Below, in pieces: positions 40,504-49,994 of a stretch of 60,832 bases of DNA. The position numbers were made by a program, and so were the translations under genes. The stretch is taken from positions 1-60,832 of the forward strand of contig QGUZ01000002.1 of the NCBI GenBank assembly GCA_003242605.1. Direction: 5' to 3'. This DNA is from Actinomycetota bacterium. GTDB lineage: Bacteria; Actinomycetota; Actinomycetes; Streptosporangiales; Streptosporangiaceae. Below the pieces are notes generated by a model. The model made no database searches. It was given only the letters and a program-made list of their open reading frames with translations, and was not told where the DNA came from. The number at the start of each line of letters is the position of its first letter. Position 1 is the stretch's first letter.

Positions 40504-41730
40504 ATGGCCGAGTGGCCGCTCACCCTCGACGTCGACGGGCTCAGGGCGGCCGGGTGGCGACCTACGCCATTCCGACAATTCATCCTAAAAATCCACAGTA
40601 GGTGCGACCTCGCCTGCACGTACTGTTACGTGTACAAAATGGCGGATTCGGGCTGGCAAGGCCGTCCGAAGACCATGTCGCCGCAGATCGCGGACGCGAC
40701 GGTCAACCGGATCGCGGAGCACGTGGACGCGCACCGCCTGCCGGAGATCGAGGTGATCCTGCACGGCGGCGAACCGCTGCTCGCCGGACCCGGCGTGATC
40801 CGCCGCATCGTCACCGGGGTGCGCTCCGCGGTCGGCGACCGCACCCGCGTCGCGGCCACGCTGCAGACCAACGGCGTCCTGCTCGACTCGCGCTACCTGG
40901 AGCTCTTCGGCGAGCTCGAGGTGCGCGTGGGGGTGAGCCTCGACGGCGACGAGGAGGCGCACGACCGCAACCGCCGCCGGGCCGACGGCCGGGGCAGCCA
41001 CCGCCACGTCGTCGAGGCGCTCCGGTTGCTCACCAAGCCGGAGTTCCGCCGGGTGTTCGGCGGGCTGCTGTGCACGATCGACCTCGGGAACGATCCGATC
41101 CGCGTCTACGAGGCGCTGCTCGAGTTCGATCCGCCCGCCATCGACTTCCTGCTTCCCCACGGCAACTGGACCACCCCGCCGCCCGGGCGCGATCCGGACG
41201 GCGACGCCACGCCGTACGCGGACTGGCTGATCACGATCTTCGACCGCTGGTACCACGCGGACCACGACGTCCCTCGCGTGAGGCTTTTCGAGGAGATCCT
41301 GCACCTGCTGCTCGGCGGCGCGTCAGCGACCGAGCTGGTCGGGCTCTCCCCGGCCGCCATGATCGTCGTGGAGACGGACGGCGCCATCGAGCAGTCCGAC
41401 CTGCTCAAGTCCGTCTACGACGGCGCCGCGGCCACCGGTCTGCACGTGCTGCGCGACTCGTTCGACGACGCGCTGCGGCTGCCCGCGATCGCGGCCCGCC
41501 AGCTCGGCCGGGCGGCCCTCGCCGGGCGATGCCGCGCCTGCCCGATCTCCGCGGTCTGCGGGGGCGGGCTGTACGTGCACCGCTACCGGGCGGGGAGCGG
41601 GTTCGCCAACCCCTCCGTCTACTGCCCGGACCTGTTCCGCCTCATCACCCACATCAGGAGCCGCGTCGCGGCCGACCTCGCCGCCGCGGCCCGGGACCGA
41701 TCACCGAGGAGCGCCGATGAACCTGCGTGA
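40504..41730 (+). CDS. fxsB: FxsB-family radical SAM/SPASM peptide maturase
   Basis: Radical SAM enzyme that modifies a small FxSxx-type precursor peptide; relatives are associated with crosslinks at Phe-x-Ser motifs. The 408-residue product starts at ATG 40504 after GGAGGCAGG. The radical SAM cluster motif is SRCDLACTYCYVYK (Cys34, Cys38, Cys41). ILHGGEPLLAG and the LQTNGVLL segment follow. A C-terminal auxiliary cluster region has CRACPISAVCGGGLYVHRY with a later Cys in SVYCPDLF. It overlaps the HExxH gene by 14 bases. The substrate is probably the small protein at 45915. Confidence 0.92.
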   Translation: MAEWPLTLDVDGLRAAGWRPTPFRQFILKIHSRCDLACTYCYVYKMADSGWQGRPKTMSPQIADATVNRIAEHVDAHRLPEIEVILHGGEPLLAGPGVIRRIVTGVRSAVGDRTRVAATLQTNGVLLDSRYLELFGELEVRVGVSLDGDEEAHDRNRRRADGRGSHRHVVEALRLLTKPEFRRVFGGLLCTIDLGNDPIRVYEALLEFDPPAIDFLLPHGNWTTPPPGRDPDGDATPYADWLITIFDRWYHADHDVPRVRLFEEILHLLLGGASATELVGLSPAAMIVVETDGAIEQSDLLKSVYDGAAATGLHVLRDSFDDALRLPAIAARQLGRAALAGRCRACPISAVCGGGLYVHRYRAGSGFANPSVYCPDLFRLITHIRSRVAADLAAAARDRSPRSADEPA

Positions 41731-43045
41731 GCACCGCATTCCGGTCCAGGTGTTCGACGAACTCGCCGACGGGGGCGGCGGATCGTCCGCCGTCGCCCGG
41801 CTCGCCGCGGCGCAGCACAGCAAACACGTGCTCCTCGTGCGCGGCGTGGTCGAGGCGGCGAAGGCGGCGGGCCACCCCGACGCGGGCGCCGCGCGCCGCG
41901 CCTACGACCTGCTCGCCGCGATCCAGATGCGGGACGGCGACGCCGTGGACGCGGTGCTCCGCCACCCTTCGGTCGGGGCCTGGGCGCGGGACACCATCAA
42001 GGCGATCCAGGAGAAGCGTCCCGGAGCCACCCCGCTCGGGCTCGCCGGCCTCGCCGCGGCCGCGGCGATCCGGGCGGGCACCGAGTGCGAGGTCGACGTG
42101 CCGGCGGACGAGGGCGTGGTGACCCTCCCCTCCCTCGGCCAGGCGGTGCTCGCGCCCACGGTGACCGAGGCGACCGTGCACTGCACCGCCGACGGCGCCG
42201 AGGTCTCCGGCGGCGGGATGATCGTGGCCATCCCCGCCGACCCGCGGCAGGACGGCCCGGGGTGGCGCGGGTTACGCACGGTCTCCGCCGAGTCGGACGG
42301 CGTGCCGCTGCGCCTCGTCATCGACGACCTCGACCCCTACCGCATGCCCGGAACCGCGAACATGGGCGGCCGGCTGAGCGGCGGCGACGCCGAGACCTGG
42401 CAGGAACGGCTGCAGGCGGCGTGGCGGCTGCTCGTCCGGCACCACCGCACCGTCGCCGACGAGGTGCGCACGGCGATCAGCGTGCTCACCCCGCTGCGCG
42501 AGCCGCCGACCGGCGGCCAGTCGAGCGCCACCTCGCGGGAGACCTTCGGCTGCGTGGCGCTGTCCACGCCGCCCGATCCGGCCACCTTCGCGGTCACCCT
42601 CACCCACGAGACGCAGCACGCCAAGCTCTCCGCCCTGCTCGACATCGTCCCGCTCACCGAGGGCGACGACGGCTCCCGCCACTACGCCCCCTGGCGCGAG
42701 GACCCGCGCCCCATCCCCGGGCTGCTCCAGGGCGCCTACGCCTACCTCGGGGTGACCGACTTCTGGCGCCGGCAGCGCCGGCTCGAGACCGGCCGGGCCG
42801 AGCTCGAGGCGAGCGCGGAGTTCTGCCGCTGGCGCGAGGCGGCGTACCTGGTGACCCGCACGCTCATGCGCAGCGGGCGGCTGACCCCGGAGGGCGAGGC
42901 GTTCACCGCCCGCATGGCCCGGCGGCTCGAGTCCTGGGCGGACGAGCCGGTCTCCCCCGCCGCCCGCGAGCTGGCCCGGAGGCGCGCCGAACGGCACCGG
43001 GCGCGCTGGCGCGAGCGCAACGGCATGGACCCGGACGCGACATGA
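41717..43045 (+). CDS. HExxH-motif protein of FxSxx systems (putative peptide beta-hydroxylase)
   Basis: A 442-residue protein with the motif LTHETQHAKLSAL (His297-Glu-Thr-Gln-His301). It belongs to the HExxH-domain family found next to FxsB-type radical SAM enzymes. Family members are now often named 2-oxoglutarate-dependent peptide beta-hydroxylases rather than proteases; that assignment is from family knowledge, not from this sequence. No signal peptide or membrane segment is seen, so it acts in the cytoplasm. The start overlaps fxsB by 14 bases, indicating one transcript. It likely modifies the same precursor. Confidence 0.85.
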   Translation: MNLREHRIPVQVFDELADGGGGSSAVARLAAAQHSKHVLLVRGVVEAAKAAGHPDAGAARRAYDLLAAIQMRDGDAVDAVLRHPSVGAWARDTIKAIQEKRPGATPLGLAGLAAAAAIRAGTECEVDVPADEGVVTLPSLGQAVLAPTVTEATVHCTADGAEVSGGGMIVAIPADPRQDGPGWRGLRTVSAESDGVPLRLVIDDLDPYRMPGTANMGGRLSGGDAETWQERLQAAWRLLVRHHRTVADEVRTAISVLTPLREPPTGGQSSATSRETFGCVALSTPPDPATFAVTLTHETQHAKLSALLDIVPLTEGDDGSRHYAPWREDPRPIPGLLQGAYAYLGVTDFWRRQRRLETGRAELEASAEFCRWREAAYLVTRTLMRSGRLTPEGEAFTARMARRLESWADEPVSPAARELARRRAERHRARWRERNGMDPDAT

Positions 43046-43065
43046 GACCGTCCCGCCCGTGGCGC

Positions 43066-45603
43066 TTACACGGCGGGCGGGTCGAAGTCGAAGTCGAGCC
43101 GCCGCCACCGCTGGGCCACGTCCGTGTCCGGGTGCCCGTGGCCCAGCACCCGCTCGTACCGGGCGATGGTGTCCGCGAGCAGCTCCTCGGCGCGCTGCTC
43201 CTCGCCCGCCGCGCGCAGGTCGATGGCGAGGTTGGCGGCGCCGGCGAGGGTGAGCGGGTGGTCGACGCCCAGCACCTCCCGCAGCGTCTCCAGCGTCTCC
43301 TCGCCCAGCCGCCGGGCCGCGGCGACGTCGCCGAGCTCGGCGAGGTCACTGGCGAGGTTGATCGCGCAGGTGAGCGAGTAGTGGTGCGCCCGGCCGAGCC
43401 TGCCGTCGAACCCCCGCAGGCTCTCCTCGTCGAGCTCGCGGGCCGCGGCCAGGTCGCCGCTCACCCGGAGCAGCAGGGCGAGGTTCATGTCGCAGCCGAA
43501 GGTGAACGGGTGGCTCCGGCCGTACGTCCGGGCGAACCGCTCGGCGGAGTCGCGCAGCAGGTCGAGCGCCTGCTCGACCTCGCCCCTGGTGCGCTGGGCG
43601 TTCGCCAGGCACAGCGCCGCGGCGAGGGTGTCGGGATGGTCGCGGCCGAACCGGCGCTCCACCCGCGAGTAGGTCTGCCGGGCGAGCTCGTACGCCTCGT
43701 CGATCCGCCCGGCCCGGCGCTTGGCGATGGACAGGTCCTTCGCGGTGCGCAGCGTCCAGGGGTGGTCGGCGCCGAGCTCCTGGATGCCGAACTCGTAGGC
43801 GTCCTCGCCGATGTCGCACGCCTCGAAGTAGTCGCCGCGGAGCCGTACCACGCGGGCGAGGCCGTTCCACGCGATGAGCACCGCCTGCTTGTCGAGCAGC
43901 GACTGGCGGCGCTGCAGGTTGTAGGCCTCCTGCTGCAGCTCGTGGGCCCTGGTGTAGTCGCCGAGGAGCATGTAGTCGACCGCGAGGTTGTTCATCGCCC
44001 GGGCGGTCCGGCGGTGGTCCGGGCCGAACACCTCCTGGTGGCGGCGCAGCGAGTCGATGTCGTGCCGCAGGGCGTCGTTGAAATCGCCGCGCTGCCGCAG
44101 GTCGCCGCCGAAGCTGTTGGACAGCAGCAGCGTCTCCTCGTGCTCCTCGCCCAGCACCCGGCGCATCCGCTCGAGCGTGGCGCGGTTCAGCTCGAACGAG
44201 CGCCGGTAGTCGCCGAGCTCGCGCAGCACCGTGCCGAGGTGCCGCTGTCCCTTGAGCACGTGCAGGTCGTCCTCTCCGCTGTCGCCGCGCCACCGGTCGA
44301 GCAGCCGCTGCACGATGTCGACGGCCGACTGGTACTGTCCGGCCGAGTAGAGGTAGCGCACGATGTTCAGCGCGAACTCCCGGACGCGCGTGTCCTGGCA
44401 CTCGGCGACGTCGGCGGGGGTCAGGTGGGCGAGCAGCTCGGCGTAGCGCGGCCAGTTGGCGTTGTCCTCGGTGCGCAGCGGGGCCGCGGCCGCCGCCAGC
44501 AGCAGGTGCACCTGGTGCCGGAAGGACTGCCGCTCCTCCTCGCTGAGGTCGGCACGCAGCAGCGCCTGGATCAGCCGGTGCACCTGGAGGGTCCGGCTCT
44601 CGGAGTCGATGCGCACCAGCGCGAACCGGCCGAGCTCGCGGATCGCCTTGCTGAGCAGGATCGGGTCGGCCAGCAGGCCGGCCATGCGCGACCCCTCGAC
44701 GTACTGCTCCGGCAGCATGCCGAAGACGTCCCGGGGGATCGGCTCCGGTCCGAAGAACGCGCAGCAGCGCAGCAGTTCCAGCGCCTCGGGGAGCCGCTGC
44801 GCGATCTGGGCCACCGACAGCGACCACGCGGCGGTCACCGAGAGCGGGTAGTCGGCCGCCTTGTTCGCGTCGAGCAGCTGGGTGGCCCGCTCCTTCAGCA
44901 GCCGCAGGTACTCGTCGACCGACATGCCGGTCTCCGCCTGCAGCGCGCCGGCCTGCTCGAGCGCGAGGGGGAGGTCGCCGAGCTCCTCGGCGAGCCGGTC
45001 GGCGTCCTCCTCGGTGAAGGTGCGGGGCGCCCGCTTGCGCAGGAACTCGATGCTCTCGGCCCGGGTGAACACGTCGACCGCCACGGTGTCGACCACGCCC
45101 TCCCAGGTGTGGTTGCGGGAGGTGATCAGCACATGGCCCGGCCCGTGCGGCAGCACGTCCTGGATGTCCTCCGGGCGGTCCGCGTTGTCGAAGATGAGCA
45201 GCCACTTCTCGTACGGCCGGCCGCGGCGCAGCGCGTCGAGCACGGCGGTGACCGCGTCCTCGGTACCGGTCATGGTGGCGCTGGGCAGCCCGAGGTGCGG
45301 GGCGAGGGCGGCGAGCGCGGAGCGCACCAGGATCGGCTGGTCCGCCGGGATCCACCAGACCAGCTCGTATTCGTGCCCGTATCGGTAGGCGTACTCGATC
45401 GCGAGCTGGGTCTTGCCGACACCGCCGAATCCGTGCAGCGCGTGCGGAACCACGGCCGTGACGTCGGAGCCGATCGCGCGGTGCAGTCTCTCGAGAAGCT
45501 CCTCGCGACCGGTGAAGTTTTTGTTTCGCTGGGGAATCCTGCCCCAGACCTGGGGTTGACGCCCGGGCAGACGGGGAGAACTCAAAGAGTCCGACACAGC
45601 CAT
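43066..45603 (-). CDS. fxsT: FxSxx-system tetratricopeptide repeat protein (FxsT), NB-ARC-like NTPase
   Basis: A STAND-type signalling protein of 845 residues. The N-terminus carries PGRQPQVWGRIPQRNKNFTGRE, then Walker A GFGGVGKTQ (58-66), Walker B-like KWLLIFDNAD and the GxP box DLPLALEQAGAL. A winged-helix region follows. The C-terminal half has many TPR motifs of the kinesin-light-chain type (repeats such as LGEEHEETL, FGPDHRRTA, LGADHPWTL and FGRDHPDTL). ATG at 45601-45603 has GGGAGG upstream. It is transcribed towards the fxsB operon and away from the fxsA-like gene. FxsT proteins accompany FxSxx precursors; their role is unknown. Confidence 0.9.
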   Translation of the reverse strand: MAVSDSLSSPRLPGRQPQVWGRIPQRNKNFTGREELLERLHRAIGSDVTAVVPHALHGFGGVGKTQLAIEYAYRYGHEYELVWWIPADQPILVRSALAALAPHLGLPSATMTGTEDAVTAVLDALRRGRPYEKWLLIFDNADRPEDIQDVLPHGPGHVLITSRNHTWEGVVDTVAVDVFTRAESIEFLRKRAPRTFTEEDADRLAEELGDLPLALEQAGALQAETGMSVDEYLRLLKERATQLLDANKAADYPLSVTAAWSLSVAQIAQRLPEALELLRCCAFFGPEPIPRDVFGMLPEQYVEGSRMAGLLADPILLSKAIRELGRFALVRIDSESRTLQVHRLIQALLRADLSEEERQSFRHQVHLLLAAAAAPLRTEDNANWPRYAELLAHLTPADVAECQDTRVREFALNIVRYLYSAGQYQSAVDIVQRLLDRWRGDSGEDDLHVLKGQRHLGTVLRELGDYRRSFELNRATLERMRRVLGEEHEETLLLSNSFGGDLRQRGDFNDALRHDIDSLRRHQEVFGPDHRRTARAMNNLAVDYMLLGDYTRAHELQQEAYNLQRRQSLLDKQAVLIAWNGLARVVRLRGDYFEACDIGEDAYEFGIQELGADHPWTLRTAKDLSIAKRRAGRIDEAYELARQTYSRVERRFGRDHPDTLAAALCLANAQRTRGEVEQALDLLRDSAERFARTYGRSHPFTFGCDMNLALLLRVSGDLAAARELDEESLRGFDGRLGRAHHYSLTCAINLASDLAELGDVAAARRLGEETLETLREVLGVDHPLTLAGAANLAIDLRAAGEEQRAEELLADTIARYERVLGHGHPDTDVAQRWRRLDFDFDPPAV

Positions 45604-45914
45604 CTGACCGCCTCCCTCGTGAAATGCCGAGGCCAGCCTAAATCGCCGCGCCGCCGCGAGGACATGAACGATGAGCCAGAATCATGTGCCGAGACCGCAT
45701 GACGGCGCTATGAGGGCGCGGTATGGTACCGCCCGGATCGCGTTATGCGAATCTCACCGCCGCCCTCCGCCCCATGATGACACGGGATCCCCCCGGTCCG
45801 CAGCCGCAACCGGGCGATCTCGTGCCAAGGCTCATCTCGGCGGACCTATCCCGGTGAATGTTTCGCTTGATCGGTCTGAGAGTTTGTGATCGGCCTGAGA
45901 GTTAAGGTGGTGTA
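45604..45914. other. Divergent promoter region between fxsT and the fxsA-like gene
   Basis: About 310 bases. On the minus strand a TAGGCT at 45635-45640 is a possible -10 box for fxsT. On the plus strand the last 50 bases contain the 19-base-period direct repeat just ahead of the precursor gene. No further gene is seen. Confidence 0.5.
45868..45903 (+). repeat. 17-nt direct repeat ahead of the precursor gene
   Basis: TGATCGGTCTGAGAGTT (45868-45884) is repeated as TGATCGGCCTGAGAGTT (45887-45903), one mismatch, 19-base period. The second copy ends immediately before AAGGTGG, the ribosome binding site of the fxsA-like gene. It may be an operator with two turns of spacing or an element of the leader RNA. 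Confidence 0.8.
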
Positions 45915-46130
45915 ATGTCTGGCGAGACCGTCGGTGAAGGCCTGCTTGATGTCACCGGACTGAGCCTTCGTGACCTGGATCGTATCGATCGTCCGGTTCT
46001 CCGCCGCGCTATCCAGCGCATTGTCGACAATAAGGACACCGGCCCGGTGGCGGGCTTCAGCTCGTCCCTGGACGACGACGAGATGCCCCAAACGGGGGAA
46101 TTTCGGTCACCCGACCTTTTCAAATCTTGA
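45915..46130 (+). CDS. fxsA: FxSxx-type precursor peptide (FxsA-like) with three F-x-S triads
   Basis: A 71-residue protein from ATG at 45915, with AAGGTGG 4 bases upstream. The leader (about 10-46) LLDVTGLSLRDLDRIDRPVL followed by RRAIQRIVDN matches the FxsA leader. Canonical FxsA proteins end in F-x-S-x-x. Here the motif VAGFSSSL (Phe48-Ser50) is internal, followed by 19 extra residues, DDDEMPQTGEFRSPDLFKS, with two more triads: Phe63-Arg-Ser65 and Phe69-Lys-Ser71, the last at the very C-terminus. It is the likely substrate of the radical SAM and HExxH enzymes. It precedes the SIR2 gene by 69 bases on the same strand. Confidence 0.87.
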   Translation: MSGETVGEGLLDVTGLSLRDLDRIDRPVLRRAIQRIVDNKDTGPVAGFSSSLDDDEMPQTGEFRSPDLFKS

Positions 46131-46147
46131 CGCGGCGCTGGTCCTTA

Positions 46148-46182
46148 TGGGAAATAGAAGCTTCAAGACAGCTCATTTCCCA
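46148..46182 (+). promoter_or_regulatory. Inverted repeat between the precursor gene and the SIR2 gene
   Basis: TGGGAAAT (46148-46155) pairs perfectly with ATTTCCCA (46175-46182) over a 19-base spacer, and an 8-bp palindrome GAAGCTTC lies inside (46157-46164). It sits 17 bases after the fxsA-like stop and 17 bases before the SIR2 start. It could be an attenuator that lets the precursor be made in excess of the effector, or an operator. Confidence 0.55.
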
Positions 46183-46199
46183 ACCATCAGGACAGCGCA

Positions 46200-47075
46200 G
46201 TGGACGATGCGGACTGGCAGCGCTTGGTCGACCAGCTCCGCAGGGGTGACTGCACGCCGTTCCTCGGCGCCGGCGCGTGCAGTGGCAGGCTGCCCACCGG
46301 CGGCGAGCTGAGCGCTATCTACGCGGAGCGGTACGGTTACCCGTTCACCGACCGGCACAACTTGGCGCGGGTAATGCAGTACGCGGAGGCCGAGGTCCTG
46401 GACCCCGTGGACCTCAAGGTCGACGTGTGCCGCATGCTGCGCGCAAGGGGGAGCAACGCGCCGCCCGATCCCGACGACGTCCACACCCTGCTCGCCGGCT
46501 TCCCGCTTCCGGTCTTCCTCACCACGAACTACGACGACTTCCTGGTCAAGGCCTTGAGAGAACAGGGCAAGGACCCGCAGCCGGAGGTCTCCCCGTGGTG
46601 GCAGACCGGAACGGGCGGCATCCCCCTGATCCCGGAGCCGACGGTCGACAAGCCCGTCGTCTACCACCTGCACGGGAGATGGGAGGAGCCGCGGTCCCTC
46701 GTCCTCACCGAGTCGGACTACCTGACCTACCTGGTGAACATGGTGGACACGTCGGCGGCGAACGGGCGGCTTCCCCTGCCGACGGCGATCCTCGAGGCGA
46801 TGACGATGCGCCCGCTGCTGTTCATCGGCTACAGCCTGCAGGACTGGACGTTCCGGGTGCTGTTCCACGGGCTCGCCCGGGACATCCCGCACCGGAACAA
46901 GCGCCGCCACGTGAGCGTGCAGCTCATGCCGGAGGTGAACGGCACGGCGAGGGACGCGGAGGAGAAGGCGCGCCGCTACCTCACGCACTACCTCGACGGA
47001 TGGAACATCTCGATCTTCCTGGGTACCGCCGCGGAGTTCTGCGCCGAGCTGCGGCGGAGGATGGAGGCCTCGTGA
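46200..47075 (+). CDS. SIR2-family domain protein, putative NADase effector
   Basis: A 291-residue SIR2-like protein. NAD-binding and catalytic motifs are CTPFLGAGACS (Gly23-Gly25 loop), FLTTNYDDFL (TTNYD 108-112) and VVYHLHGRW (HLHG 156-159), with LLFIGYSLQDWTFR later. Zinc-ribbon cysteines of true sirtuin deacetylases are absent, which fits the SIR2 class that degrades NAD in anti-phage systems. The GTG at 46200-46202 has only a weak AGGA ahead. The stop overlaps the STAND gene (GTGA), so the two products are probably made together and act together. Confidence 0.87.
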   Translation: MDDADWQRLVDQLRRGDCTPFLGAGACSGRLPTGGELSAIYAERYGYPFTDRHNLARVMQYAEAEVLDPVDLKVDVCRMLRARGSNAPPDPDDVHTLLAGFPLPVFLTTNYDDFLVKALREQGKDPQPEVSPWWQTGTGGIPLIPEPTVDKPVVYHLHGRWEEPRSLVLTESDYLTYLVNMVDTSAANGRLPLPTAILEAMTMRPLLFIGYSLQDWTFRVLFHGLARDIPHRNKRRHVSVQLMPEVNGTARDAEEKARRYLTHYLDGWNISIFLGTAAEFCAELRRRMEAS

Positions 47076-49090
47076 CCACGGTGCCGATCACGACGATCCC
47101 GAAGGAGCGCACCGGCGGCCCCTACGTCGGGCTACGGCCGTTCACCTCCGCCGAGCGCGAGCTGTTCTTCGGGCGGGACCGGGAGGCCCGGGACGTCGCC
47201 ACGATCTGGCAGGCGACCGGGCTCACCGTGCTGTTCGGGGCGTCCGGCGTGGGCAAGACGTCCCTGCTGAACGCCGGCGTGGTGCCGCGCATCGACCCGG
47301 AGCGGGCCGACCTGCTGCCGGTCGCCCGGCCCGCGCCGCGCCCCGGGACCCCGCCGCCGGGGGCGAACCGGTACGTGCTGGAGCTGCTGTCCGCCTGGGC
47401 CCCGGACCGGCCCCCGGCGACGCTGGCGCGGATGACGATCTCGGAGTTCCTCCGTACGCGGCCGGTACGGCGCGACCGGTACGGCGATCCGATCCCGGTG
47501 CTCGCCGCGATCGACCAGGCGGAGGAGCTGTTCAGCAGCCCGGTGCAGTGGAAGGCGGAGCGCATCGCCTGCCTGGAGCAGCTCGCCGAGGCGGCGCGCG
47601 AGCACGACGGGCTGCACCTGCTGCTCTCGCTGCGCGAGGAGTACCTGGCGGCCGTGCTCCCCTACGAGCGGCGGCTCGGGCCCGGGTCGCGGGCGCGGTT
47701 CCACCTGCAGCCGTTCGCCCGGGAGGCCGCGCTCGAGGCGGTCACCGGGCCGCTCCGGCACACCGACCGGAGCTTCGGCCCGGGCGCGGCCGAGGTGCTC
47801 GTCGACGACCTGTGCACGGTGACGTTCGTCAACGACGAGGGCCGCCGGACGCGGCTCGTCGTCGACGAGGTCGAGCCGGTCCAGCTCCAGGTGGTCTGCT
47901 CGGCGCTGTGGGACGCGCTGCCGCCCGAGGTGACCACGATCACGATCGACCACGTGCGCGCGTACGCCGACGTCGACCGGTTCCTCGTCGGGTTCTGCCG
48001 CCGGGCGCTGCAGGAGGTGGCGACCGAGCACGGCATCACGGTCGGCGAGCTCCGGCACTGGCTGAGCAGCCACTTCGTCACCGAGCACGGCACGCGGAGC
48101 GTGGTGAACGAGGGCCTGCACGAGACCGCGGGCATGCCGAACACGGTCGCCCGCGCCCTGGAGGACCGCCACGTGCTGCGGGCGGAGTACCGCATCAACA
48201 GCCGTTGGTACGAGCTGCAGCACGACCGCCTCATCTCCGCGATCAGGCGTCCGGAGTCCCCCGAGGCGAGCCTGGATCAGGCGCGCCGGGCGCTCAAGGA
48301 GGGCCGGTGGGACGTGGCCCGCGAGCTCGCCGATGCCGCCGCGCGGATGGCCGAGATCGACGACACCTGGGTACAGGCCGAGGTCCAGGCGATCCTCGGC
48401 GAGGTGGACGCCGCGCTCGGCGACGTCAAGTCGGCGGAGCGGCGCTACGACGAGGCGATCGCGACGTTCGTGCTGCGCCAGCAGTTCGACAAGGTCGCCG
48501 AGGTGCTCACCGCGAAGGGACGGCTCCGGCTCGCCCAGGGCGAGTACGCCGCGGCGGTGGAACTGCTCAAGAGCGCGCTCACCTGGGCGTCGGGCGACGT
48601 GTCCGTCCAGCACGCGCTCGGGCAGGCGCTGTGGCTCTCGGGCCAGCCGCACGCGGCCCTCGCCTGCCTCAACGGCGCGGTCGAGCGGGCCGACGAGCCG
48701 GACGCCGACGCGCTGGCGCTGCGCGGGGAGATCCTCGCCGACCTGGGGCGGGCGCGGGACGCGCTGCGCGACCTGACCCGGGTCCATTCCCGGCTGCGGC
48801 CCGAGACCTTGGCCGCGCGGGCGCTGGCGTTCGCGCTCACCGGACGGCTCGACGCGGCCGAGCAGGAGGCGCTCCACGCGGTCGACTCGATCGACCAGTC
48901 CGGCGGCCCCGCCGGGCCGGTGGGCGGGCCGGACGGCCGCGGGCCCGCGCTGCTCCGGGCGGCGCGCACCCACGCGCTGCTCGGCGACCCGGCGCTCGCG
49001 GCCGACCTCGCCAGGAAGGCGCTCGAGATGCCCGGCCTGCCCCCGCACCTGCGCCGGCAGGCCGAGGAGCTGGTCACCCGGAGGGCGTGA
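47072..49090 (+). CDS. nSTAND1-type NTPase with TPR-like C-terminus, putative sensor partner of SIR2
   Basis: A 672-residue STAND NTPase. The N-terminus reads GGPYVGLRPFTSAERELFFGRD, the typical nSTAND1 entry, then Walker A GASGVGKTS (56-64) and Walker B-like PVLAAIDQAEELF. The LSLREEYLA and LQPFAREAALEAV segments follow. A winged-helix-like region spans 290-400. The C-terminal 250 residues form alpha-helical TPR-like repeats (ERRYDEAIATFVLRQQFDKV, LALRGEILADLGRARDALRD). In Avs and related systems such proteins detect a trigger and activate an effector. Here the effector (SIR2) is a separate, translationally coupled gene. Confidence 0.88.
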   Translation: MTTVPITTIPKERTGGPYVGLRPFTSAERELFFGRDREARDVATIWQATGLTVLFGASGVGKTSLLNAGVVPRIDPERADLLPVARPAPRPGTPPPGANRYVLELLSAWAPDRPPATLARMTISEFLRTRPVRRDRYGDPIPVLAAIDQAEELFSSPVQWKAERIACLEQLAEAAREHDGLHLLLSLREEYLAAVLPYERRLGPGSRARFHLQPFAREAALEAVTGPLRHTDRSFGPGAAEVLVDDLCTVTFVNDEGRRTRLVVDEVEPVQLQVVCSALWDALPPEVTTITIDHVRAYADVDRFLVGFCRRALQEVATEHGITVGELRHWLSSHFVTEHGTRSVVNEGLHETAGMPNTVARALEDRHVLRAEYRINSRWYELQHDRLISAIRRPESPEASLDQARRALKEGRWDVARELADAAARMAEIDDTWVQAEVQAILGEVDAALGDVKSAERRYDEAIATFVLRQQFDKVAEVLTAKGRLRLAQGEYAAAVELLKSALTWASGDVSVQHALGQALWLSGQPHAALACLNGAVERADEPDADALALRGEILADLGRARDALRDLTRVHSRLRPETLAARALAFALTGRLDAAEQEALHAVDSIDQSGGPAGPVGGPDGRGPALLRAARTHALLGDPALAADLARKALEMPGLPPHLRRQAEELVTRRA

Positions 49091-49844
49091 GCGGCGAGCG
49101 GGCGGCCTCCCAGATGTGGTCGAACTGCTCCACCCAGTACGCGTACCAGCGCTCGCTGGTGTCCCGGGTCAGCTCCAGGTGCATCCGCGCCGGGGTGGCG
49201 GTGTTGTGAAAGCCGTGGATTTCGACGATCGCGCGGCCGTGTGACGTCTCGGGGTCGAGCAGCACCAGGCTGAACCCCGGATTGTAGGGCAGCAGGCGAT
49301 ATTCGAAGCTCCCGTTCGTCGTCCACCGGCTCATGAGCTCGAGGCGTTCCAGCGTGCTTTCCAGCGAGGCGGGGAGCCGCTGCACGGGGAATTCCACCGA
49401 GTCGTCGAGCTGCCGCGCGGCCAGCCGCAGCGCGTCCTTCTCCTCCGGGTCGAGCACGACCACCCGAACCGACCCGTTCCTGCGGGCGAGCACGGTCCGG
49501 CGCAGCACGTCACAGGTCTCGGCGGAGAGCAGATTCACCGCCGAGGGCGCGTATACGCGGACGTCCCGCGCATTGGCGAACGTCTCCGACAGCGGGCGCT
49601 GTTCGAAAACCGACCGGTCGTGGAGCAGGTCGGGCGCGGGCTCGGTGGCGGTCTCCGGCAGGGTCGCCCGGTACAGCAGTACGCCCAGCGCGGCGAGCAC
49701 GGCGGCCCACCGGAGATCGTCGTCGAGCTTATCGTCGAAAAAACCGAGAACCGCGAAAACGACGATGATGACGGTGAGGACGTATGCGTCGATGTTGCGC
49801 CCGTTTCGAAGATCGCGAAAAATGCGCCGGAACACATGAACCAT
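49074..49844 (-). CDS. Two-helix membrane protein with possible PLD-like soluble domain
   Basis: A 256-residue protein from ATG at 49842-49844 with GGGGGA upstream. Two membrane helices lie near the N-terminus (YVLTVIIVVFAVLGFF and LRWAAVLAALGVLLYRATL). The soluble part has ARDVRVYAPSAVNLL, VRVVVLDPEEKDALRLAARQL, FEYRLLPYNPGFSLVLLDP and EIHGFHNTATP, a layout that recalls phospholipase D-like domains, but no complete HKD motif is visible. The function is not recognised. It converges on the STAND gene and their 3' ends overlap by 17 bases. It may be a membrane-acting member of the same cassette. Confidence 0.75.
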   Translation of the reverse strand: MVHVFRRIFRDLRNGRNIDAYVLTVIIVVFAVLGFFDDKLDDDLRWAAVLAALGVLLYRATLPETATEPAPDLLHDRSVFEQRPLSETFANARDVRVYAPSAVNLLSAETCDVLRRTVLARRNGSVRVVVLDPEEKDALRLAARQLDDSVEFPVQRLPASLESTLERLELMSRWTTNGSFEYRLLPYNPGFSLVLLDPETSHGRAIVEIHGFHNTATPARMHLELTRDTSERWYAYWVEQFDHIWEAARSPLTPSG

Positions 49845-49994
49845 GACCGTCCCCCGTCGCCGTATCGATTTGCGGGTGCATTCCATTCTCGATCGGCGCC
49901 GGGGCGAGCACCACCGCGCATCTCGTTTCTCGTTTCCCGGTATTCCCGTGCGTTTCTGATCGTCGGCCGGGGCGAGCGCGCCGCGGCGACGGTC

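What the first reader, a model, noticed from the sequence alone, without database searches (positions are those of the whole stretch)
40504..49844. Combined FxSxx peptide-maturation and SIR2/STAND cassette
Seen: fxsB, an HExxH gene, fxsT, an fxsA-like gene, a SIR2 gene, a STAND/TPR gene and a membrane protein lie together between housekeeping genes. The precursor is directly upstream of the SIR2-STAND pair on one strand. The usual TIR-like FxsC gene is not found; a SIR2 gene occupies the place of a second NAD-acting module. Inference: a modified peptide may set the state of an NAD-degrading abortive-infection module, as signal, inhibitor or trigger.
Basis: inference. Interest (0 to 1): 0.82.

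Follow-up and report, generated by a model that had tools for sequence, protein, structure and literature searches.

The report
Peptide-modification cassette wired to NADase
In one family of actinobacteria, genes that chemically modify a small peptide usually sit in a conserved block with two alarm-type ATPases and often a probable NAD-destroying enzyme, which suggests that the peptide helps control a cell-suicide or virus-defence switch.

Summary
The window (draft genome, Streptosporangium's family) holds intact fxsB, HExxH hydroxylase, fxsT, fxsA, SIR2 and nSTAND1-TPR genes plus a small membrane protein. Around 98 SIR2 relatives from family genomes, fxsT is nearby at 95, nSTAND1 at 95, HExxH at 84 and fxsB at 73; an fxsA-like gene lies just upstream at 74. 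In 40 genomes, 54 of 76 SIR2_2 genes lie within 10 kb of an unfused FxsB (0.4 expected), none near a fused FxsB-HExxH; the fused form pairs with the TIR-like FxsC instead.

SIR2 is dispensable: decayed in the congener at the same site and missing from its slot in nine cassettes that keep fxsA and nSTAND1. SIR2 co-diverges best with nSTAND1; fxsA, once the other genes are allowed for, with HExxH and FxsT. Best model: FxsT reads the modified peptide and nSTAND1 recruits SIR2 as an NADase effector. Four NB-ARC proteins fused to a catalytically dead SIR2 fit this. It is a new variant of a kind predicted in 2020; activity is untested.

The parts
40504..41730 (+). fxsB, radical SAM/SPASM cyclophane-type peptide maturase (frame open from 40426)
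   Evidence: TIGR04269 487.8 bits over cut-off 370; Radical_SAM PF04055; CxxxCxxC visible in translation; dN/dS 0.28 against congener
41717..43045 (+). HExxH aKG-type peptide beta-hydroxylase homologue
   Evidence: TIGR04267 174.8 bits over cut-off 40; HETQH in translation; dN/dS 0.16
43066..45603 (-). fxsT, NB-ARC ATPase with C-terminal TPRs
   Evidence: NF040586 1067 bits over cut-off 300; NB-ARC and TPR; within 10 kb of 95 of 98 SIR2 relatives; dN/dS 0.30
45604..45914 (.). divergent intergenic region between fxsT and fxsA, presumed to hold promoters
   Evidence: gene layout; not tested as a promoter
45915..46130 (+). fxsA, FxSxx-type precursor peptide, 71 aa, FSSSL followed by a 19-aa tail
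   Evidence: TIGR04268 35.7 bits over cut-off 28; fxsA-like gene within 700 nt upstream at 74 of 98 SIR2 relatives; dN/dS 0.23
46200..47075 (+). SIR2_2 protein, predicted NADase effector subunit
   Evidence: PF13289 6e-29; catalytic N110 and H158, kept in 93 of 97 aligned rows; similar to ThsA and KomC
47072..49090 (+). nSTAND1 NTPase with C-terminal TPRs, GTG start overlapping the SIR2 stop
   Evidence: PF20703 8e-33 and TPR families; nSTAND1 relative within 150 nt of SIR2 at 89 of 98 places; dN/dS 0.29
49074..49886 (-). optional small membrane protein, two N-terminal helices then an unknown soluble domain
   Evidence: no family match over a cut-off; relative seen at 25 of 98 SIR2 places; low-confidence model, pLDDT 49.3

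Best explanation
This is one conserved actinobacterial conflict cassette. FxsB and the HExxH enzyme modify the FxsA peptide (predicted Phe-to-Ser cyclophane and beta-hydroxylation). The divergent NB-ARC-TPR ATPase FxsT is the most likely reader of that peptide. The downstream nSTAND1-TPR ATPase recruits the co-transcribed SIR2 protein, which on activation hydrolyses NAD+ and stops the cell, as in abortive infection or programmed death. Shown here: gene content, conserved core order, separation from FxsC cassettes, purifying selection on the retained genes, repeated SIR2 loss, and pseudo-SIR2 fusions. Inferred: the chemistry of the modification, that FxsT binds the peptide, that nSTAND1 and SIR2 form a complex, and that the output is NAD depletion against invaders.
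For: At 98 SIR2 places: fxsT 95, nSTAND1 95 (89 within 150 nt), HExxH 84, fxsB 73; fxsA-like gene 74. Outside the family, 11 places in 9 genomes: nSTAND1 next door at 11 of 11, fxsT within 1.5 kb at 8 of 11. Control in 40 genomes: 54 of 76 SIR2_2 genes lie within 10 kb of one of 77 unfused FxsB genes, 0 near 22 fused ones, 0.43 expected. FxsC lies within 5 kb of 63 of 68 fused and within 10 kb of 0 of 82 unfused FxsB genes displayed. SIR2 and nSTAND1 distances correlate 0.90, partial 0.65; fxsA partial with HExxH 0.33, FxsT 0.21, FxsB 0.06, SIR2 -0.06, nSTAND1 -0.09, over 57 full cassettes. The five kept genes have dN/dS 0.16-0.30 against the congener, where SIR2 is decayed. Four NB-ARC proteins carry a dead SIR2 domain beside or inside such cassettes. 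Nearest solved SIR2 relatives include ThsA and KomC.
Against: No function is measured. SIR2 is missing from its slot, decayed or a dead fusion in 11 of 100 cassettes (9, 1 and 1), so it is not the obligate output. 55 of 82 displayed unfused FxsB genes and 23 of 77 in the 40-genome set have no SIR2 within 10 kb; 22 of 76 SIR2_2 genes there have no FxsB within 10 kb. Eight SIR2 places (L174, L176-L182) have HExxH, fxsT and nSTAND1 but no detected fxsB or FxSxx peptide. Three of 98 SIR2 places have no fxsT nearby. The raw fxsA-SIR2 correlation (0.47) is not nil, and all distances share phylogeny, so the partial values are only suggestive.
Confidence: 0.55

Rival explanations
1. The FxSxx genes and the SIR2-STAND pair are separate systems that share a defence island and do not act on each other.
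For: No functional data. SIR2 is lost independently of the rest; eight SIR2-nSTAND1 places lack fxsB and a FxSxx peptide; 55 of 82 displayed unfused FxsB genes have no SIR2 within 10 kb.
Against: fxsT next to the pair at 95 of 98 places, 54 of 76 against 0.43 expected, the split between unfused FxsB with SIR2 and fused FxsB with FxsC, a conserved fxsT/fxsA/SIR2/nSTAND1 core order, and fusion of FxsT-like NB-ARC to SIR2.
Confidence: 0.12
2. The peptide is a secreted antibiotic or signal and SIR2-STAND is its self-protection or kin-recognition arm.
For: RiPP maturases often make exported products (recalled); some other FxSxx loci in the family have a gene that looks like an MFS transporter by eye (no family search run on it).
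Against: No exporter or protease family hit among the window cassette genes; the membrane protein has no known family and is present at only 25 of 98 places.
Confidence: 0.12
3. The system is a developmental or stress-linked programmed-death switch of mycelial actinobacteria rather than phage defence.
For: Chromosomal at the window and its congener. SIR2 relatives are frequent in this family (60 of 297 genomes) and rarer across the class sample (20 of 394, 11 of them in the family). Only the class was searched by whole genome; the plasmid set gave a Nonomuraea record of 11.9 Mb and one Ensifer plasmid, the phage set two partial matches of 28% identity.
Against: Parts match predicted conflict systems of Kaur 2020; repeated SIR2 loss and tandem copies look like defence turnover.
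Confidence: 0.18
4. The SIR2 protein is a protein deacetylase or peptide-modifying enzyme that acts on FxsA.
For: Its gene lies next to fxsA, and raw divergences correlate (0.47). Two of the solved relatives are named deacetylase by their depositors.
Against: Other near relatives are the NADases ThsA and KomC; after allowing for the other genes it tracks nSTAND1 and not fxsA; it is missing from cassettes that keep fxsA.
Confidence: 0.03

Closest known systems
FxSxx-type peptide-processing systems coupled to AP-ATPases (Kaur 2020, PMC7159879; section 24 read, other passages seen)
   Same: Radical SAM/SPASM enzyme, HExxH (MPTase) protein, small FxSxx peptide and an AP-ATPase with TPRs; the authors predict a peptide that acts as toxin or signal in a conflict system
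   Different: They describe TIR-linked AP-ATPases and VMAP ternary genes; the main text has no SIR2 or sirtuin. Here a SIR2 and a second STAND, nSTAND1, are present, and no vWA, MoxR or VMAP family was hit among the cassette genes. They call the HExxH protein a peptidase; NCBIfam calls it a hydroxylase.
FxsC (TIR-like) cassettes
   Same: FxSxx maturation with a possible NAD-acting protein (FxsC activity untested here)
   Different: FxsC goes with fused FxsB-HExxH (63 of 68 within 5 kb); none of 82 displayed unfused genes has it within 10 kb
AVAST type 5 (Avs5; passages of PMC12931631 seen)
   Same: SIR2 NADase with a STAND NTPase and repeat sensor
   Different: Avs5 is one polypeptide with nSTAND3; here SIR2 and nSTAND1 are separate overlapping genes and come with a peptide-maturation set
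Thoeris ThsA and Kongming KomC
   Same: SIR2 domain with the same catalytic His (window H158 aligns with KomC H146)
   Different: No TIR_2 (ThsB type) in the own genome and no SLOG family hit on the 291-aa protein; Kongming partner genes were not searched for
Fused radical SAM-HExxH enzyme with ChlH (described in PMC12636437, passages seen)
   Same: Cyclophane formation and aKG-dependent beta-hydroxylation of a RiPP precursor
   Different: Here the two enzymes are separate genes and the product is unknown

Membership tests
FxSxx-COOH peptide system | FxsB radical SAM/SPASM maturase (TIGR04269) | tested here: met
   487.8 bits, cut-off 370
FxSxx-COOH peptide system | Precursor matching TIGR04268 | tested here: met
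   35.7 bits, cut-off 28
FxSxx-COOH peptide system | FxSxx motif at the very C terminus | tested here: not met
   FSSSL is followed by 19 residues; of 83 cassette peptides 45 end in exact FxSxx, 20 in Fx[ANQG]xx, 18 have a tail or another end. So the window peptide is an FxSxx-type precursor but not a strict -COOH one.
FxSxx-COOH peptide system | FxsT NB-ARC-TPR protein (NF040586) | tested here: met
   1067 bits, cut-off 300
FxSxx-COOH peptide system | TIR-like FxsC (TIGR04276) | tested here: not met
   not found in own genome; 66 of 297 family genomes have it; own assembly 78% complete
SIR2 NADase effectors (ThsA/KomC-like) | catalytic Asn and His of the SIR2 fold | tested here: met
   N110 and H158, kept in 93 of 97 aligned rows; the four exceptions are fusions; the decayed G001 copy and the split L160 match were left out; alignment to KomC and ThsA
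SIR2 NADase effectors (ThsA/KomC-like) | NAD+ hydrolysis on activation | not testable with these tools
   needs an enzyme assay
Thoeris | ThsB TIR partner and ThsA SLOG domain | tested here: not met
   SIR2_2 is the only Pfam hit on the 291-aa protein; no TIR_2 match in the own genome, 78% complete
Avs5 | single SIR2-nSTAND3-repeat polypeptide | tested here: not met
   separate genes, nSTAND1 model
VMAP ternary conflict system | vWA, MoxR and VMAP genes in the cassette | tested here: not met
   no vWA or MoxR hit among the cassette genes scanned; no VMAP model was looked for by name, and the rest of the window was not scanned
Anti-phage defence system | protection against phage | not testable with these tools
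   experiment needed

The most novel reading that the evidence does not exclude
A guarded RiPP: FxsA stays inside the cell and its modification state is the signal. Making it should need SAM, an iron-sulphur cluster, 2-oxoglutarate, iron and oxygen, so an infection or metabolic upset would leave new FxsA unmodified; FxsT and nSTAND1 would sense this and release the SIR2 NADase, with pseudo-SIR2 domains on NB-ARC ATPases acting as adapters to the active enzyme.
Probability: 0.12. Interest if true: 0.9.

Novelty: new variant of a known kind. Interest (0 to 1): 0.64.

Why it matters
It ties an orphan class of predicted cyclophane RiPPs, whose job is unknown, to a probable NADase effector by strong comparative evidence, and so gives a direct assay (NAD level, growth arrest, phage plating) for what FxSxx peptides do. 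It also shows that TIR-like FxsC and SIR2 are divided between two cassette types that share the same maturation logic, and offers a case of a catalytically dead SIR2 domain joined to a STAND ATPase.

Tried and rejected
Structure predictions of SIR2 (3 sequences, pLDDT 42.8) and the membrane protein (2 sequences, pLDDT 49.3) were too poor for a fold search, so none was run. A collection scan with the SIR2 protein gave only 2 loci, both with the cassette; whole-genome searches replaced it. The plasmid set gave two records (an 11.9-Mb Nonomuraea record and an Ensifer plasmid) and the phage set two partial matches of 28% identity, so no mobile-element link was found. Chance co-location was considered and rejected. 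A direct SIR2-peptide link was considered and is not favoured. A replacement peptide in the eight loci without fxsB was looked for by eye and not found. G303 has a SIR2 in a 1230-aa open frame whose upstream part runs antisense to fxsT, so I did not count it as a fusion.

Literature: searches for FxSxx with radical SAM (one paper), FxsA/FxsB, cyclophane/radical SAM (20 of 33 listed), SIR2 with STAND, RiPP and others, HExxH hydroxylase RiPP, SIR2 with nSTAND, triceptides (15 of 18 listed) and radical SAM/SIR2/RiPP/STAND NTPase (none) showed no description of a SIR2-nSTAND1-FxSxx cassette. Five papers were opened (PMC7159879, PMC12636437, PMC8195603, PMC11002830, PMC12931631), one section of the first read and passages of the rest seen; the others were seen as listings only. 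Only open-licence PMC text was searched and no supplements were read.
Full report
What is there. The window is contig C166 of a 5.57-Mb, 589-contig draft assembly, 78% complete. Between the glycine cleavage T and H genes and a protein without a Pfam match lies a seven-gene block. fxsB (40504-41730 +) and the HExxH gene (41717-43045 +) overlap; fxsT (43066-45603 -) faces them; fxsA (45915-46130 +), SIR2 (46200-47075 +) and nSTAND1-TPR (47072-49090 +) run away from fxsT, and a membrane protein (49074-49886 -) closes the block. Curated cut-offs are passed by FxsB, HExxH, FxsT and FxsA. Walker A motifs of both STAND proteins, CxxxCxxC of FxsB, HETQH of the hydroxylase, and TTNYD and HLHG of SIR2 are visible in the translations (the motif names are recalled).

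Is the linkage real. The SIR2 protein was searched against 297 genomes of the family: 60 genomes in 18 of 68 genera have a match at E 1e-15 or better. I fetched about 10 kb on each side of 98 of the listed places (all but the window itself; two listed pieces of one G083 gene were taken as one place, and the second piece of one G068 gene was left out). The 98 are not independent: some lie in the same cluster, four are fusions with a dead SIR2 and one is the decayed copy of G001. Within these stretches fxsT was found at 95 of 98, nSTAND1 at 95 (within 150 nt at 89), HExxH at 84, fxsB at 73 and the membrane protein at 25. Twelve stretches are shortened by contig ends. The core order fxsT (opposite strand), fxsA, SIR2, nSTAND1 recurs; the fxsB-HExxH pair lies beyond fxsT as in the window or, as in L102, L105 and L108, beyond nSTAND1. 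A profile built here from FxsA peptides finds such a gene within 700 nt upstream on the same strand at 74 of 98; L162, L163 and L165 were added by eye. The misses include L174 and L176-L182, which have HExxH, fxsT and nSTAND1 but no detected fxsB or FxSxx peptide. Outside the family, a class sample of 394 genomes gave 11 places in 9 genomes: nSTAND1 is next door at 11 of 11 and fxsT within 1.5 kb at 8 of 11.

Control for chance. In 40 of the 60 positive genomes (the first 40 listed, G001 with its decayed copy among them) the PF13289 genes at E 1e-10 and the FxsB genes at E 1e-60 were listed in full: 54 of 76 SIR2_2 genes lie within 10 kb of one of 77 unfused FxsB genes, none near the 22 fused ones, 0.43 expected for 9-Mb genomes. 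Of unfused FxsB genes 54 of 77 have a SIR2_2 within 10 kb, of fused 0 of 22 (Fisher 7e-10). The choice of genomes inflates the first share, but not the contrast between the two FxsB types.

SIR2 and FxsC mark different types. FxsC occurs in 66 of 297 family genomes and was not found in G000 or its congener. Among the 150 FxsB places displayed (more existed but were not shown), FxsC lies within 5 kb of 63 of 68 fused FxsB-HExxH genes and within 10 kb of 0 of 82 unfused ones, while SIR2 lies within 10 kb of 27 of 82 unfused and 0 of 68 fused. I split the 150 rows by bit score (gap between 518 and 506); all 68 above have open frames over 700 aa, and a few of the 82 also have long frames. Nine of 77 FxsC places do lie within 10 kb of a SIR2, where two cassettes stand side by side.

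SIR2 can be lost. In the only congener held (G001, 99% complete) the block sits at the same chromosomal site, with flanks about 90-91% identical. fxsB, HExxH, fxsT, fxsA and nSTAND1 are 81-89% identical, but SIR2 has an internal stop and has lost its motifs, and only a partial 34% match to the membrane protein remains. dN/dS is 0.28, 0.16, 0.30, 0.23 and 0.29 for the five kept genes and about 1 for SIR2 (the SIR2 value rests on a poor alignment). Of 100 distinct cassettes with nSTAND1 divergent from fxsT, 91 have a SIR2 row between (counting the decayed G001 copy and the dead fusion in L183) and nine have none but keep fxsA and fxsB; one of the nine (L151) has a SIR2 on the far side of fxsB. 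On the nSTAND1 tree the label needs three changes (8.8 in shuffles); with G001 that makes at least four losses or gains.

Which parts go together. On 57 cassettes with all six genes, distance matrices correlate most for SIR2 and nSTAND1 (0.90; partial 0.65 given the other four genes). fxsA correlates with SIR2 at 0.47 (0 of 999 permutations reach it) and with FxsT at 0.65; its partial correlations are 0.33 with HExxH, 0.21 with FxsT, 0.06 with FxsB, -0.06 with SIR2 and -0.09 with nSTAND1. This suggests two submodules, peptide plus HExxH plus FxsT and nSTAND1 plus SIR2. FxsA is short, shared ancestry is not removed, and in loci with two cassettes fxsB and HExxH were assigned by nearness to fxsT, so this is a hint.

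A dead SIR2 joined to a STAND ATPase. Four proteins (L183, L185-L187; 830-897 aa) join an FxsT-like NB-ARC region to a C-terminal SIR2 domain (NB-ARC is over Pfam's cut-off in L183 only and unlisted in L187, and SIR2_2 is under its cut-off in L187). All four lack both the catalytic Asn and His, whereas the 93 other rows of the alignment have both (the decayed G001 copy and the split L160 match were left out). Three lie in the same cluster as an intact SIR2-nSTAND1 pair; one (L183) lies in the SIR2 slot. They form one group on a quick tree with long branches, so count them as one origin. In the 297 genomes these four are the only listed matches with open frames over 800 aa. My reading is that the dead domain is an adapter to the active SIR2 or to nSTAND1.

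How it likely works. Related radical SAM enzymes form three-residue cyclophanes; a Phe-to-Ser link is reported for MscB (PMC11002830, passages seen). [quoted passage not shown] The SIR2 protein resembles ThsA and KomC and has the aligned catalytic His; Avs5 shows that a SIR2-STAND protein depletes NAD+ on phage sensing (PMC12931631, passages seen). From this I infer that FxsA is matured and read by FxsT, and that nSTAND1 activates SIR2. The trigger is unknown.

Novelty. Kaur 2020 (section 24 read) predicted that FxSxx peptides amplify conflict systems with AP-ATPases, some with TIR; its main text has no SIR2. Kaur 2021 named nSTAND1 and mentions SIR2 once in another system, without the term peptide-processing (passages seen). 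None of the searches showed the SIR2-nSTAND1-FxSxx cassette, but supplements and closed papers were not seen. It is a new variant of a predicted kind, now with strong comparative support.

Noticed in passing
L183:7790-10480, L185:9576-12164, L186:9573-12200, L187:7919-10408: NB-ARC proteins fused to a SIR2 domain that has lost both catalytic residues, beside or inside SIR2-nSTAND1 cassettes; possible adapter.
   Followed up: yes
L174, L176-L182 (about 5-12 kb): HExxH, fxsT, SIR2 and nSTAND1 together without a detected fxsB or FxSxx peptide; the substrate of the HExxH enzyme there is unknown.
   Followed up: partly
L191, L196, L201, L203, L207: Other FxSxx loci have a very long fxsT-like ORF (1381-1689 aa by a crude gene call), often with a gene that looks like an MFS transporter and a roughly 500-aa unknown, and no SIR2; perhaps a third cassette type.
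   Followed up: partly
G034, G106, G131, G171, G185, G195, G152, G168, G128: FxsC-type and SIR2-type FxSxx cassettes stand within 10 kb of each other (9 of 77 FxsC places).
   Followed up: no
window 49074-49886 -: Small protein with two N-terminal helices and an unknown conserved soluble domain, at 25 of 98 SIR2 places; only a partial 34% match remains in the congener, where SIR2 is decayed.
   Followed up: partly
window 46071-46127 +: fxsA has a 19-residue tail after FSSSL, largely shared with the congener; 18 of 83 cassette peptides have a tail or an end other than FxSxx or Fx[ANQG]xx.
   Followed up: partly
L098, L099: fxsA, SIR2, nSTAND1 and HExxH present but no fxsB found in the 20-kb stretch, although both genomes have a fused-type FxsB elsewhere; maturation may be in trans.
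   Followed up: no
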